Assembly (NCBI GenBank): GCA_024860865.1
Contig: JACRDV010000017.1
Span: 1-9,301 of the forward strand
Length of the DNA stretch: 9,301 bases
Source: JACRDV01 sp024860865 [NCBI: Methanobacteriota archaeon]
GTDB lineage: Archaea > JACRDV01
Direction: 5' to 3'
The notes beneath the pieces were generated by a model. That model did no database searches, was not told the origin of the DNA, and saw nothing but the letters and a program-made list of their open reading frames with translations. Numbering within the stretch: the first letter of the stretch is position 1; every line of letters starts with the position of its first letter. Both the position numbers and the translations under genes were made by a program. Of the stretch, positions 147 to 8,485 are shown piece after piece.

Positions 147-259
147 GTGAACTACCTACTGGCTAAAGCCAGTGGCATCACAGATGCCTTATGGTTTCCA
201 AGGTCGCACGCTGGTTGGCTAGCCTCTCGCTATCGAGGCGTAGCTGCACAAAGCCTTGG
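147..259 (-). ncRNA. Putative omega RNA (reRNA) scaffold / element right end
   Basis: On the minus strand the 3' end of tnpB and the sequence after its stop are highly structured. A 9-bp stem with one bulge (GCTA-GCCTC at 218-226 with GAGGC-G-TAGC at 235-244) spans the tnpB stop codon. It is enclosed by a 6-bp helix, 198-203 with 254-259. Then come two perfect hairpins: GATGCC/GGCATC (183-188 with 174-179, 3-nt loop) and ACTGGC/GCCAGT (168-173 with 158-163, 4-nt loop). The segment ends GGTAGTTCAC at 147. Known omega RNAs overlap the 3' end of tnpB and run through the right end, with the guide taken from flanking DNA, which here would be about 127-146. The 5' limit of the RNA is not visible. 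Confidence 0.65.
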
Positions 260-1316
260 TTATGGGCTGGTTCACAAACAGCCCTGTTCCAAACATATAG
301 TCTAGGAACCTGTTTGCAATATTTATTGCTCCATTTAAATCTGCACTATATTCTAAGCCACAAGAGCACTTGAATAATCTTTTTATTCTAACTCCTTTCG
401 CTCCACATTTATGGCAAGTTATTGAAGTGTGATTCTCTGGTATCAATTCAACTGGAATTCCTTCCCAGTTTGCTTTGTAAGTTATGAATTTTGTTAATTG
501 AGCAAAAGCCCAACTATTTATTTTTCTATTGTTCTTTCTGCACCTAGTTTTCCCCTTTATCCTCGGCTTTCTGATTTTCTTTAATTTTCCTAAAACAATT
601 GCTGGCACGTACCCTTTGTTTTTTAGCTCAACTGCTCTGTTTACGATTTCTCTGCTTATCTTATGGTTTACATCCCTAACAATTCTCTGCTCTTTATTTC
701 CAATTCTTTTGATGATTCTTATTGCCTTCTCTATTTTTGCCTTGCCTAGGCTTTTTCTTAAATTGTTGTAGTGAGCTCTTATGGCTCTAATTTTATTTCC
801 GTAGAACCTTGGGATCATTTTCCCATCCAACAACTCCACAGAAGTTGCTGGATTTCTTTCTCCTAGGTCTATGGCAATTATAGCAAGCTTAGAAAAATTT
901 TGAGGGTGTTTAATTTCAACCTCTTTCTTAACAGCAAAATGCAGGAAATATTTTTCATTTTTTCTGGTTAACTTTGATTCGCAAATCTCGAAGTTTTCGA
1001 AATTGCAATGGGGCTTGATTGCGACCCACACTCCTCCCCTTCTTCCAGCAACTGGAATCCTTGACCAATACTTTGCAATTTTTGTTTCTTGCTTTTCAAT
1101 TTTTATTAAGTCCTTTCTTATAGATATTGGGTATTCTTTTCCTTGCTTTATTTTTTTGTAAAATCTTAAAGACTGCTGCTTGTTTGCAGAGTAAAGCTTT
1201 GCGCCTTTATTCCCTCGAAGGAAGAGCTGGAGGTTTTTGTATTCTTGATCTAAAATTTGCTTCTTAATTTTTGTTAAAGCAACAACCTTTGCTTTTATTG
1301 TTTTCTTAACTTCCAT
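219..1316 (-). CDS. tnpB: TnpB, RNA-guided nuclease of IS200/IS605 family (RuvC-II Glu replaced)
   Basis: This is a TnpB of 365 aa from the chosen ATG, within the usual range. Visible motifs: RuvC-I IDLGERNPAT with Asp150; a segment IVLGKLKKIRK (about 240-250) where Gly243 sits at the place of the usual RuvC-II Glu (IVxEDL); a zinc ribbon CHKCG...FKCSCG (Cys301, Cys304, Cys317, Cys319, the second pair being CxC); and RuvC-III SADLNGAINIA with Asp326. TnpB proteins use an omega RNA to cut DNA next to a short target motif. The frame is open to 1394, but the extra 26 residues are not TnpB-like. A TATA-like TTTAAAT at 1341-1347 lies about 28 bases before the ATG at 1316, which suits a leaderless transcript. 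The Gly could mean lost activity, a repressor-like derivative, or the subset of TnpBs with a relocated glutamate; sequence alone cannot decide. Confidence 0.9.
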   Translation of the reverse strand: MEVKKTIKAKVVALTKIKKQILDQEYKNLQLFLRGNKGAKLYSANKQQSLRFYKKIKQGKEYPISIRKDLIKIEKQETKIAKYWSRIPVAGRRGGVWVAIKPHCNFENFEICESKLTRKNEKYFLHFAVKKEVEIKHPQNFSKLAIIAIDLGERNPATSVELLDGKMIPRFYGNKIRAIRAHYNNLRKSLGKAKIEKAIRIIKRIGNKEQRIVRDVNHKISREIVNRAVELKNKGYVPAIVLGKLKKIRKPRIKGKTRCRKNNRKINSWAFAQLTKFITYKANWEGIPVELIPENHTSITCHKCGAKGVRIKRLFKCSCGLEYSADLNGAINIANRFLDYMFGTGLFVNQPITKALCSYASIARG

Positions 1317-1340
1317 GGTTTTAACTGAAACATAAATTTT

Positions 1341-1350
1341 ATTTAAAAAT
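1341..1350 (-). promoter_or_regulatory. TATA-like element for tnpB
   Basis: The minus strand reads ATTTTTAAAT here, centred about 28 bases upstream of the ATG at 1316. That distance would place transcription start at or next to the start codon, giving a leaderless mRNA. No Shine-Dalgarno sequence precedes that ATG. Confidence 0.4.
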
Positions 1351-1399
1351 TTCCGAACAAAAAGCAAGTGGAGGGGGTGACCGAAAGTATTCAATTCAT

Positions 1400-5343: not shown

Positions 5344-5778
5344 CTATGGATTGACTTTAAAAGAAGTTTTTGCTTCGTATTTAGGCTTGCTTGTTATGAT
5401 TCCAATTAAAGTATAGGTTCCAACTTGAGTTGTTTTCCAAGTTTCAAAATAACTTTGCTTTTCTCCCGGTTGCAGAGTGACTGAGCCAATCACTTGAGCG
5501 AATGCTTTATCAGCTGACCAACGCCAAATCTCATTGTTGTTTTTTAAAATGATGAAATCGTAACGTTGCGATGAAGCAAATTCAATAGTTATTGGATTAG
5601 GTCCATTGTTTAAGATAGTCACTGTCATATTGACAATTTGACCAGACCAATACTCGGGCTTGTCGGCTGAGATTGTTACCTTCAGCCCTCCTTCAGCAGG
5701 TTTAGGCTTCAAGTATAAAACTAAAGCTATAGCCAAGATTGCTGCAATCAAAACTATTAAAATTCTTAAAGCTTTCAA
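5344..5778 (-). CDS. Membrane-anchored BsuPI-domain protein
   Basis: A 144-aa protein with one N-terminal membrane segment (KALRILIVLIAAILAIALVLYL) and an extracellular beta-sandwich. The domain resembles BsuPI (PF12690, named after a Bacillus intracellular proteinase inhibitor): NNGPNPITIEFASSQRYDFIIL...EIWRWSADKAF...VTLQPGEKQSYFETWK...GTYTLIGIITSKP. Its substrate or partner is unknown. I chose TTG 5778 because AGGGG lies five bases upstream and it leaves a clean signal-anchor. The frame stays open to an ATG at 5862, but those 28 residues would run through the hairpin leader of the divergent transporter gene. It shares an intergenic region and perhaps a TATA region with that gene. Confidence 0.72.
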   Translation of the reverse strand: MKALRILIVLIAAILAIALVLYLKPKPAEGGLKVTISADKPEYWSGQIVNMTVTILNNGPNPITIEFASSQRYDFIILKNNNEIWRWSADKAFAQVIGSVTLQPGEKQSYFETWKTTQVGTYTLIGIITSKPKYEAKTSFKVNP

Positions 5779-5809
5779 TATGGCCCCTATAAAAAATATT
5801 ATTAGCTGG

Positions 5810-5816
5810 TATAAAT
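5810..5816. promoter_or_regulatory. TATA element between divergent genes
   Basis: TATAAAT on the plus strand would place transcription start near 5836, right at the first arm of the leader hairpin of the transporter gene. On the minus strand the same site reads ATTTATA and lies about 35 bases before the TTG of the BsuPI-domain gene, also a workable distance. One element may therefore serve both directions. A further TATAAAAAA at 5788-5797 could drive the plus strand from about 5813. Confidence 0.4.
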
Positions 5817-5834
5817 CAATTATTAACGCCCAGA

Positions 5835-5875
5835 GCGGAGCCGAACTCCGCAATGACATCAAATTCTGCGGAGGT
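5835..5875 (+). promoter_or_regulatory. Candidate switch leader: competing hairpins over the ribosome binding site
   Basis: GCGGAG occurs at 5835-5840 and again at 5868-5873, with CTCCGC at 5846-5851 between them. The middle segment can pair with the first copy (6 bp, 5-nt loop CCGAA) or, as CTCCGCA, with TGCGGAG at 5867-5873 (7 bp, 14-nt loop). The second pairing covers most of GGAGGT (5870-5875), the ribosome binding site eight bases before TTG 5884. The two helices exclude each other, as in translational riboswitches or attenuators. No known preQ1 riboswitch class matches the sequence by eye. A ligand is speculation. Confidence 0.45.
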
Positions 5876-5883
5876 TGGTAGGT

Positions 5884-6603
5884 TTGATTGAAATAGTAGC
5901 TTGGATACTGGCAATAAGTGCAATAACATTAATTGGAGCCGAATATGCTCGAAGATTTGATTCCTCCACACTTTTAGTTGCATTGTTCACTACATTCATC
6001 TTGCTTAGCGAAATAATAGCTGTCAAATTTGCAAAATTTGAGTTACTAGACTACCCTATTTTTGCGCCTGCAGCAGTTTTAATTTTTTCAGTTACCTTTT
6101 TGTTAACAGACATTGTCAATGAAAAATTTGGGCGAATGGAAACTCATAAGATGATTTTCATAACTTTCGTTTGCCTTTTAGCTATGGTGTTTTTTATTCA
6201 GATAGCCAGCATTTGGCCAAATGCCCCATTCTGGGCAAACAGTGAAGCATGGAATAAAATTTTAGGTTTAGTTCCTAGGATTACCATTGCCTCAATGATT
6301 GCCTATTTGGTCTCAGAAAACTTTGATGCCTGGAGCTTTGCTAAACTAAAAGAAAAAATTGGGAAACATCTCTGGATTAGAAATGCCTTTAGCTCAATTC
6401 CAGCATTAGGATTAGACACTATCATTTTTATTACTATTGCTTTTTATGGAACTATGCCAGTCTACCAAGTGTATCAGATTATCCAAGGACAATTTATTTT
6501 AAAATGGTTAACTGCAGTTATAGATATTCCGTTCATGTACCTTGCACGCTATAGGTTAGGAGTCAAATCAAAGCCTTCGCTGACTGGTCAAGCCTACGCT
6601 TAA
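5884..6603 (+). CDS. yhhQ: Queuosine/archaeosine precursor transporter (YhhQ/Vut_1 family)
   Basis: A 239-aa integral membrane protein of the COG1738 (DUF165, Vut_1) family. E. coli YhhQ imports 7-deazaguanine precursors preQ0 and preQ1. About six membrane helices are visible. Family hallmarks: FAPAAVLIFSVTFLLTDIVNEKFGR (about 61-85), the loop FWANSEAWNKILGLVPRITIASMIAYLVSENFDAW, and WIRNAFSSIPALGLDTIIFITIAFYG near the end. In archaea the imported preQ0 would feed archaeosine synthesis, which fits the RaSEA and ArcS-like genes following 160 bases downstream. Start TTG 5884 has GGAGGT 8 bases upstream; a TTG at 5875 would overlap that site. The leader can form alternative hairpins over the ribosome binding site. 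The exact substrate (preQ0, preQ1 or the nucleoside) is not readable. Confidence 0.9.
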   Translation: MIEIVAWILAISAITLIGAEYARRFDSSTLLVALFTTFILLSEIIAVKFAKFELLDYPIFAPAAVLIFSVTFLLTDIVNEKFGRMETHKMIFITFVCLLAMVFFIQIASIWPNAPFWANSEAWNKILGLVPRITIASMIAYLVSENFDAWSFAKLKEKIGKHLWIRNAFSSIPALGLDTIIFITIAFYGTMPVYQVYQIIQGQFILKWLTAVIDIPFMYLARYRLGVKSKPSLTGQAYA

Positions 6604-6765: not shown

Positions 6766-7851
6766 ATGCCACCTAACTACTATGACAAGCTAATTCGAAA
6801 ATTTAAGATGCAAAAAGGTTTTTCTGCTATACAGGCACGACCGGCCAAATTTAACTATGATGAGCTTGTTCGAGGATTTAGAACACAAAAAAATACTCGC
6901 CCAGTATCAGAGCCGGTTGCTTATTGGGTTGAGAACGAGGTACTATATGATAAGCGCAGCCATCCAGTTGGAACTATCATTCTTAACACAAAGGAATGCC
7001 CATATGCATGCACAATGTGTGGCTACTGGAAAGATTCATTAGATTTTACCCCATCTCATGAAGCGCTAATTGATCAAGTTAAATTTGCATTAGGGAAATT
7101 AAGAGAAATAGATGCTATAAAAATTTATAATAGTGGAAGCTTCTTTGACGATGAAGCAGTTCCACCTGCTGTTAGGAATGAAATTGCAAATTTAGTTAAA
7201 GACATTAAATTAGTCACAGTTGAATCGAGATGGAACTATATTAGTGATCAAGCAATCGACTTTGCAAATAAGTTAAATGGAGCGCTAGAAGTTGCTATTG
7301 GACTGGAGGTAGCTGATAACAAAAAGCTGGCTCAAATCAACAAAAAAATGACTTGCAAAACATTTAAAAAAACAGTAACTTTCCTAGAAGGAAATGGAAT
7401 TTATGTAAAAGCATACATGTTGGTTAAGCCACCGTTCACAACAGAAAAACAAGCGTTTTTGCTTGGGAGACAAACAATCGATTTTGCTTTCGATTGTGGA
7501 ATTTATACACTAAGTATTTTACCAACTGCTGTGATGGATGGATTTATTGACCATTTAGCTCAAACTGAATTTTTTAAGCCGCCAAATCTATGGACAGTAT
7601 ATAAATTAGTTCAATATGCACTTCAAAAAAGATTTGAGCGCGTTCTAGTTGATACATCTGATCTAGAGCAGTTGGTCAAATGTAAAAATTGTGCTGAAAT
7701 TTTTAAGCGCTCTTTTAGCTTTATGAATCAGCGGCAAATTCTTCTTGAGTTCGATTGCGCATGTAAAAAAGACTGGTTAAACCTGCTTAAGCAAGATAGT
7801 ATTAGGCCTTTTAAAGAATTGGTGAGAGAAGTTATTGCCAAAAAAATTTGA
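6766..7851 (+). CDS. raSEA: Archaeosine biosynthesis radical SAM enzyme RaSEA
   Basis: A 361-aa radical SAM protein. ECPYACTMCGYW carries the cluster-binding cysteines Cys78, Cys82 and Cys85 (CX3CX2C) near the N-terminus. NSGSFFDDEAVPP (about 122-134), VESRWNYIS (152-160) and LEVAIGLEVADNKKLAQINKKMT (about 174-196) are typical of the archaeosine radical SAM family. Four further cysteines, CKNC (306-309) and CAC (331-333), could form a C-terminal metal site. In the characterised pathway ArcS adds lysine to preQ0 at tRNA position 15, and RaSEA converts this intermediate to archaeosine. The gene overlaps the ArcS-like gene by 17 bases and follows a precursor transporter, which agrees. A related TIGR01210-type protein with another role is less likely. 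Confidence 0.87.
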   Translation: MPPNYYDKLIRKFKMQKGFSAIQARPAKFNYDELVRGFRTQKNTRPVSEPVAYWVENEVLYDKRSHPVGTIILNTKECPYACTMCGYWKDSLDFTPSHEALIDQVKFALGKLREIDAIKIYNSGSFFDDEAVPPAVRNEIANLVKDIKLVTVESRWNYISDQAIDFANKLNGALEVAIGLEVADNKKLAQINKKMTCKTFKKTVTFLEGNGIYVKAYMLVKPPFTTEKQAFLLGRQTIDFAFDCGIYTLSILPTAVMDGFIDHLAQTEFFKPPNLWTVYKLVQYALQKRFERVLVDTSDLEQLVKCKNCAEIFKRSFSFMNQRQILLEFDCACKKDWLNLLKQDSIRPFKELVREVIAKKI

Positions 7852-8485
7852 GATTCCAGAAAAAGATTGGGATGTTATAGGAATTAACGGAGTTAGTGAA
7901 AAACAGTTAACTCATCCACACTTTGAGGCTTGGCATAAATGGATCATCTCTGAGTACCAGCCGCCGAAAAAGAAAATTGCTGTTTTTATCCCATGCGCAG
8001 CAATTAAACCTTATTTCAATTCTCCGATCCACAAGGCATTTAATTCGATAATTGACAAGTACGATTCTCATAAGATTGTAATTTCAAATGCTGGAGTCAT
8101 ACCCTACGAGTTCTCGAATTGTTGGCCATATAATGCATATGATTGGAATCCAGCTTTTGAAACTAAAAAAATTAAAAAAAGTTATATCGAAGTTACAATG
8201 AAACGCATAAAAAATTTTCTAATTAAACATAGTCCAAAATATAAAAATTATGTGGCTTATTTACATCCAAATTCTGAAAGTTTAAAAGCATTAAGAAAAG
8301 CTTGCGCTGAATTGAATGTACCATTAAATATTGTTAAAGTCAAAAAAATTCGATTACATAAAACTGCTGATCGCGATTTAATTTTAGCTATATCTGTTAA
8401 CCTAAAGAAATTAGAGCAGGTATTAGAAAAACTTTCTAAAAAAATCAAAGCTAAGGAAAGCCATTACTCCTCAGCTTTAATTTAG
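7835..8485 (+). CDS. arcS: Minimal ArcS-like archaeosine synthase subunit (DUF5591 core)
   Basis: A 216-aa protein containing the core catalytic domain of ArcS (DUF5591). Motifs: IAVFIPCAAIKPYFNSPIHKAF (about 48-69; PC-x3-KPY and a following His, matching the conserved PCSxxKPY-S-SH pattern), then VISNAGVIPYEF and WPYNAYDWNP (97-106). Full-length ArcS has a TGT-like N-terminal part and a C-terminal PUA domain; both are absent here, so tRNA binding may be supplied by another protein such as RaSEA. The protein starts at TTG 7835 with GGTGA nine bases upstream, overlapping RaSEA by 17 bases. The expected role is addition of lysine to preQ0 in tRNA. It converges with the next minus-strand gene, one base apart. 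Confidence 0.8.
   Translation: MPKKFEIPEKDWDVIGINGVSEKQLTHPHFEAWHKWIISEYQPPKKKIAVFIPCAAIKPYFNSPIHKAFNSIIDKYDSHKIVISNAGVIPYEFSNCWPYNAYDWNPAFETKKIKKSYIEVTMKRIKNFLIKHSPKYKNYVAYLHPNSESLKALRKACAELNVPLNIVKVKKIRLHKTADRDLILAISVNLKKLEQVLEKLSKKIKAKESHYSSALI

What the first reader, a model, noticed from the sequence alone, without database searches (positions are those of the whole stretch)
5835..5884. Possible RNA switch controlling a preQ0/preQ1 transporter in an archaeon
GCGGAG is present twice (5835-5840, 5868-5873) around a single CTCCGC (5846-5851). One pairing leaves GGAGGT free; the other (7 bp, 5846-5852 with 5867-5873) hides it just before the TTG start of the YhhQ-type transporter. The predicted transcription start (about 5836) falls on the first arm, so start-site choice could also toggle the structure. 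Bacterial preQ1 riboswitches control the same transporter family, but I know of none described in archaea, and the sequence does not resemble preQ1 classes I-III by eye.
Basis: partly seen in the sequence, partly recalled or inferred. Interest (0 to 1): 0.62.

Follow-up and report, generated by a model that had tools for sequence, protein, structure and literature searches.

The report
Alternative hairpins before archaeal preQ0 transporter
In one archaeon the start of a gene for importing a tRNA-modification precursor carries a repeated motif that could hide its ribosome-binding site in a hairpin, but no relative examined shares it and nothing shows that it senses a metabolite.

Summary
The gene is a TIGR00697 queuosine-precursor transporter beside archaeosine genes. 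TgtA is present and QueC not recognised, so preQ0 salvage is likely. Corrections: the start is probably TTG 5884, because TTG 5875 overlaps the Shine-Dalgarno sequence (SD); the SD-hiding hairpin is longer (5840-5852/5867-5879). The switch reading is weak. At 37 C a transcript from 5835 frees the SD but pairs the start codon, while one from 5836 or later keeps the SD hidden. The closest homolog found (68%) lacks the motif, and 0 of 64 other SD-bearing homolog leaders have any such arrangement. Rfam finds no preQ1 class here, though it finds preQ1-I in 9 of 27 bacterial yhhQ loci. 'None described in archaea' is not right: sRk28 of Thermococcales was proposed as preQ1-like (PMC3124441). Best reading: a lineage-specific SD-sequestering hairpin with unknown trigger. 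An operator palindrome or coincidence remain possible. Covariation could not be tested: no same-phylum genome is held.

The parts
5835..5840 (+). segment 1, GCGGAG (5' arm of hairpin A)
5846..5851 (+). segment 2, CTCCGC (shared arm: pairs with segment 1 in hairpin A or segment 3 in hairpin B)
5868..5873 (+). segment 3, GCGGAG, overlapping the Shine-Dalgarno sequence
5840..5879 (+). hairpin B, SD-sequestering: 5840-5844 with 5875-5879, A5845/G5874 mismatch, 5846-5852 with 5867-5873
   Evidence: fold; pair probabilities
5870..5875 (+). Shine-Dalgarno sequence GGAGGT
   Evidence: 9 nt from GGAGG to TTG 5884
5853..5891 (+). 12-codon ATG frame (MTSNSAEVGRFD) running over the SD and the yhhQ start; no evidence that it is translated
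5810..5817 (+). TATA-like TATAAATC, candidate box A (by eye only)
   Evidence: no promoter consensus found
5884..6603 (+). yhhQ / Vut_1 family queuosine-precursor (preQ0) transporter gene, corrected start TTG 5884
6766..7851 (+). RaSEA-like archaeosine radical SAM gene (below that model's cut-off)
   Evidence: TIGR01210 168.7 bits, cut-off 212.15
7835..8485 (+). ArcS-like gene, DUF5591 part (archaeosine synthase alpha, partial)
   Evidence: PF17884 61.7 bits, cut-off 26; NF040592 60.7 bits, cut-off 440

Best explanation
A lineage-specific translational-control leader. Shown by sequence and folding: segment 2 can pair either with segment 1 (hairpin A, 5835-5851) or with segment 3 as part of a longer hairpin B (5840-5852/5867-5879) that buries the yhhQ Shine-Dalgarno sequence. 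Inferred: hairpin B is the usual state and holds down translation of the preQ0 transporter, and its opening (by hairpin A on transcripts starting at or before 5835, by heat, by a protein or by an RNA-binding ligand) lets ribosomes in. The trigger is unknown, and there is no evidence that it is preQ0, preQ1 or archaeosine.
For: Three-segment arrangement in 0 of 20,000 shuffles, twice. Longest SD-complementary stem (7 bp, next 5) and second-lowest fold energy among 43 strong-SD genes in 40 sampled stretches plus the window. Each hairpin alone folds better than 200 of 200 shuffles (z -4.46 and -3.76). Hairpin B probability 0.98-1.0 for transcripts starting at 5836, 5838 or 5840 at 37 C; over all five starts tried 0.66-1.0 at 60 C and 0.93-0.99 at 75 C. 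Salvage context: transporter beside archaeosine genes; TgtA present (TIGR00432 576 bits, cut-off 350); the four QueC-model (PF06508) hits, all just over that model's cut-off, are GMP synthase, argininosuccinate synthase, LarE and NadE.
Against: No evolutionary support: the closest homolog (68%) lacks it, 0 of 64 other SD-bearing leaders have any three-segment arrangement, and no same-phylum genome is held. Hairpin B is not always the main state: from 5835 at 37 C A has 0.97, from 5819 A 0.27 and B 0.73 with an A-type minimum-energy fold, the minimum-energy fold of 5779-5900 also contains A, and in the genome comparison, where folding began at 5834, the SD was paired only 0.15 while 4 of 43 genes had 0.9 or more. 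The A state also pairs the start codon (2% free from 5835), so it is no clean ON state. The transcription start is unknown; one near 5850 would remove the element and leave an AU-rich hairpin. Longer leader folds have modest z-scores (-1.8 to -2.4).
Confidence: 0.4

Rival explanations
1. DNA operator: GCGGAG-CCGAA-CTCCGC is a 17-bp palindrome just downstream of a TATA-like box and is bound as double-stranded DNA by a dimeric repressor. The third copy only overlaps the SD.
For: Perfect 6-bp arms, the only such palindrome in the 1.54-Mb assembly, placed where archaeal repressors commonly bind (general knowledge). In 7 loci of other archaea a small ribbon-helix-helix (weakly CdrS-like) gene lies just upstream of yhhQ, so control of yhhQ by a DNA-binding protein is plausible.
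Against: No other copy with one mismatch is listed, and matches with up to 3 mismatches are no commoner than the reversed control (141 against 140 per strand), so no regulon shows. No match to the ribbon-helix-helix protein at E below 0.05 in this genome (best 0.07). It does not explain why the third copy coincides with the SD.
Confidence: 0.2
2. Coincidence or neutral structure: a GC-rich leader with SD-like and anti-SD-like words and no selected function beyond constitutive tuning of translation.
For: Single example; not found in any of 64 other SD-bearing homolog leaders. The exact pattern occurs in 6 of 394 archaeal genomes (8 places, this one included) against 6 places for the reversed control, so it has no general enrichment. 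The find came from a free reading of a 9.3-kb window. A two-segment SD complement alone arises in 2-2.6% of shuffles.
Against: The three-segment arrangement was not reproduced in 20,000 shuffles, done two ways, and the sampled genome is 35% GC.
Confidence: 0.3
3. A preQ0-, preQ1- or archaeosine-sensing riboswitch of a new class, with the SD in hairpin B as expression platform.
For: Right gene family (bacterial yhhQ is under preQ1 riboswitches, PMC5372724, passages read), apparent lack of QueC with TgtA present, and a bistable SD-overlapping leader.
Against: A leader of 48-65 nt (starts 5819-5836) with two simple hairpins and no evident aptamer core; no Rfam preQ1 family at E up to 10, while the same models find preQ1-I in 9 of 27 bacterial yhhQ loci and 0 of 48 archaeal ones; absent from the tgtA leader by eye and from the homolog leaders examined.
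Confidence: 0.07

Closest known systems
preQ1-I riboswitch (RF00522)
   Same: tied to queuosine-precursor salvage genes including yhhQ (PMC5372724 passages); often works on the SD (recalled)
   Different: no covariance-model match here; the 5-nt loop CCGAA and lack of an A-rich tail and pseudoknot do not fit the class as I recall it
sRk28 of Thermococcales (proposed preQ1-like RNA, PMC3124441, PMC4247193; passages read)
   Same: archaeal RNA beside a 7-deazaguanine gene, said to share features with preQ1 riboswitches
   Different: 70 nt, conserved with compensatory changes and a possible pseudoknot in Thermococcales, next to a QueC-like gene rather than yhhQ; its sequence was not in the passages read, so no direct comparison was made
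SD-sequestering leaders with alternative hairpins, including RNA thermometers (general kind, recalled)
   Same: one arm shared between an SD-hiding and an SD-freeing hairpin
   Different: no trigger known, no conservation seen, and the SD-freeing state pairs the start codon

Membership tests
preQ1 riboswitch classes I, II, III | match to an Rfam covariance model | tested here: not met
   no match at gathering score or at E up to 10 for 5760-5920; positive control: 9 preQ1-I hits in bacterial yhhQ loci
preQ1 riboswitch classes I, II, III | upstream of a queuosine-precursor gene | tested here: met
   TIGR00697 over cut-off
preQ1 riboswitch classes I, II, III | binding of preQ1 or preQ0 | not testable with these tools
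   needs in-line probing or calorimetry
riboswitch in general | element conserved in leaders of homologous genes | tested here: not met
   0 of 64 other SD-bearing homolog leaders have any three-segment arrangement; caveat: nearest is 68% identical and no same-phylum genome is held
riboswitch in general | covariation of the paired segments | not testable with these tools
   no second example to align
SD-sequestering leader with alternative hairpins | two mutually exclusive hairpins, one covering the SD | tested here: met
   predicted only:
SD-sequestering leader with alternative hairpins | the other state frees both SD and start codon | tested here: not met
   from 5835 at 37 C: SD 92% free, start codon 2% free
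SD-sequestering leader with alternative hairpins | transcription start upstream of both arms | tested here: inconclusive
   no promoter consensus derivable
repressor operator | palindrome near the promoter, shared by a regulon | tested here: inconclusive
   palindrome present but at one place in the genome
sRk28-type RNA | sequence or structure similarity to Thermococcales sRk28 | not tested
   sequence not in the passages read

The most novel reading that the evidence does not exclude
An archaeal preQ0-sensing translational switch of an undescribed class in an organism that seems to depend on imported preQ0: ligand binding would decide between hairpin A (SD exposed) and hairpin B (SD buried), closing the transporter when preQ0 is plentiful.
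Probability: 0.07. Interest if true: 0.7.

Novelty: new member of a known kind. Interest (0 to 1): 0.22.

Why it matters
Natural archaeal riboswitches with experimental support are very few: a 2021 paper names the fluoride riboswitch of Thermococcus kodakarensis as the only one determined (PMC8241225, passages read). A real switch on a preQ0 importer in an organism without recognisable QueC would be a compact test case. As it stands it is one unconserved example.

Tried and rejected
Protein query in genome contigs: 31 pattern stretches, no relative. Same-phylum search returned only the window's own genome. The class of the 68% homolog gave matches in 8 of 23 genomes and nothing closer. Archaeal 16S (RF01959) was not found in this assembly, so I did not place the organism. 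The exact 17-nt palindrome is in 6 stretches of viral contigs, not examined. Exact three-segment pattern in the 133 loci held: only two loci that are copies of the window itself. A T-arm mimic and an H-type pseudoknot (loop CCGA with 5875-5878) were considered by eye and dropped: the loop is 5 nt, not 7, and the pseudoknot would leave no nucleotide for its first loop. Promoter consensus from 84 genes: none. sigma-70 and terminator scan: nothing useful. tRNAs of the sample were listed to guess growth temperature; many carry introns and I drew no conclusion.

Full report
Observation. The sequence holds GCGGAG at 5835-5840, CTCCGC at 5846-5851 and GCGGAG at 5868-5873. Segment 3 overlaps GGAGGT (5870-5875). 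The SD-hiding hairpin is longer than described: 5840-5844 with 5875-5879, one mismatch, then 5846-5852 with 5867-5873.

Chance. With the SD fixed and the upstream leader shuffled keeping dinucleotides, a 6-nt complement to the SD region appears in 399 of 20,000 (5780-5869 shuffled) and 529 of 20,000 (5819-5869 shuffled); the three-segment arrangement appears in 0 of 20,000 each time. Among 397 GGAGG sites with at least 75 nt upstream in 40 sampled stretches of the same genome plus the window, both strands, 3 have the complement and 1, the window, the third copy. Among 43 genes with a strong SD found by a simple ORF rule in the same sample and window (316 ORFs kept), this one has the longest SD-complementary stem (7 bp, next 5) and the second-lowest fold energy, but in that fold, which begins at 5834, its SD is paired only 0.15, while 4 of 43 genes have 0.9 or more. 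The palindrome occurs at one place in the assembly. Across 394 archaeal genomes the exact pattern is in 6 genomes, 8 places, against 6 places for the reversed pattern, so it is not generally enriched.

Function of the gene. It is Vut_1 (PF02592) and TIGR00697 queuosine precursor transporter. Downstream lie a RaSEA-like gene (below its NCBIfam cut-off) and an ArcS-like gene (over Pfam's DUF5591 cut-off; below the NCBIfam one). TgtA is encoded elsewhere in the genome. The four QueC-model hits, each counted by the tool as over that model's cut-off, are GMP synthase, argininosuccinate synthase, LarE and NadE, so no QueC is recognised in an assembly estimated 92% complete; QueD and QueE were not searched. 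preQ0 salvage for archaeosine is therefore the likely role. PMC5372724 reports that yhhQ is under preQ1 riboswitches in different bacteria and says that preQ0 salvage is likely in archaea with homologs (passages read).

Folding. At 37 C, transcripts from 5819 give A 0.27 / B 0.73 (with an A-type minimum-energy fold); from 5835 A 0.97; from 5836 B 0.98; from 5838 or 5840 B 1.0. At 60 and 75 C B is the larger for each of the five starts tried (from 5835: 0.66 and 0.93). In state A from 5835 the SD is 92% free but the start codon only 2% free, because 5858-5864 can pair with 5882-5888. Each short hairpin beats 200 of 200 shuffles (z -4.46 for A, -3.76 for the core of B); the longer leader folds have z -1.8 to -2.4. 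The transcription start is not known: I could not derive a promoter consensus from 84 genes.

Relatives. No same-phylum genome is held. The protein has matches in 53 of 394 archaeal genomes, own genome included, the closest at 68% (G181, L162). There yhhQ overlaps the end of a small ribbon-helix-helix gene, so it has no leader of its own, and it lacks the arrangement; its start region folds no better than shuffles (z -0.32). In one script I examined 114 loci including the window: 7 duplicate leaders and 1 without a start were dropped, leaving 106; 41 had no SD-like word; of the 65 with one, window included, 6 have a 5-nt complement to the SD and only the window has the third copy. Four further fetched loci with distant or broken matches (L015, L016, L017, L185) were not put in, and weaker matches had no locus. 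Starts in that script were chosen automatically and some bacterial ones are probably internal. Most of these homologs share 30-55% identity with the window protein, so the absence shows that the element is not a widespread conserved switch and cannot exclude a lineage-specific one.

Known classes. Rfam finds nothing in the window at gathering score and no preQ1 family at E up to 10 for 5760-5920 (the two listed matches are far below their gathering scores). As a positive control, in 75 distinct yhhQ loci scanned whole (27 bacterial, 48 archaeal, not all independent, fetched loci not scanned being left out of the count) preQ1-I is found in 9 bacterial loci (Sporosarcina, Planococcus, Planomicrobium) and in 0 archaeal ones. 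Those nine lie roughly 600 nt upstream of the yhhQ match, so they need not be in the leader of yhhQ itself. In archaea, sRk28 of Pyrococcus was said to share features with preQ1 riboswitches (PMC3124441, passages read) and was detected in Thermococcus as a putative preQ1-sensing RNA, function unproven (PMC4247193, passages read). In the listings of four searches (riboswitch with archaea, preQ1 and queuosine, 20 of 32 papers shown; with archaeosine, 12 of 12; archaeal riboswitch phrases, 7 of 7; with preQ0, archaea and transporter, 5 of 5) I saw no title on a yhhQ leader switch in archaea; the library holds open-licence papers only.

Verdict. The sequence feature is real and unlikely by composition alone. 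The most economical reading is an SD-sequestering leader hairpin with a competing hairpin, confined as far as seen to this lineage. Metabolite sensing is not supported by anything beyond the identity of the gene and its salvage context. An operator palindrome and coincidence are live rivals.

Noticed in passing
L055, L068, L078, L086 (Archaeoglobi), L162, L008, L175, just upstream of yhhQ: A small conserved ribbon-helix-helix gene (the L068 copy weakly CdrS-like, 32.8 bits against a cut-off of 100) overlaps or lies within about 60 nt of yhhQ in 7 loci found by a motif search of the loci held; a candidate DNA-binding regulator of preQ0 transport in archaea.
   Followed up: partly
window 7835-8485; L127:937-2577: The ArcS-like gene is only the DUF5591 part (216 aa), while the 547-aa TgtA elsewhere in the genome also matches the ArcS model over residues 205-540; archaeosine synthase looks split differently from the model.
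   Followed up: no
window 5853-5891: A 12-codon ATG frame spans the SD and overlaps the yhhQ start; a possible leader peptide, untested.
   Followed up: no
window 219-1394, minus strand: Open frame that looks by eye like a TnpB-type transposon protein (CxxC pairs near the end); not searched.
   Followed up: no
window 5344-5778, minus strand: Divergent gene with a BsuPI (intracellular proteinase inhibitor) domain (PF12690, 91.2 bits) sharing the intergenic region with yhhQ.
   Followed up: no
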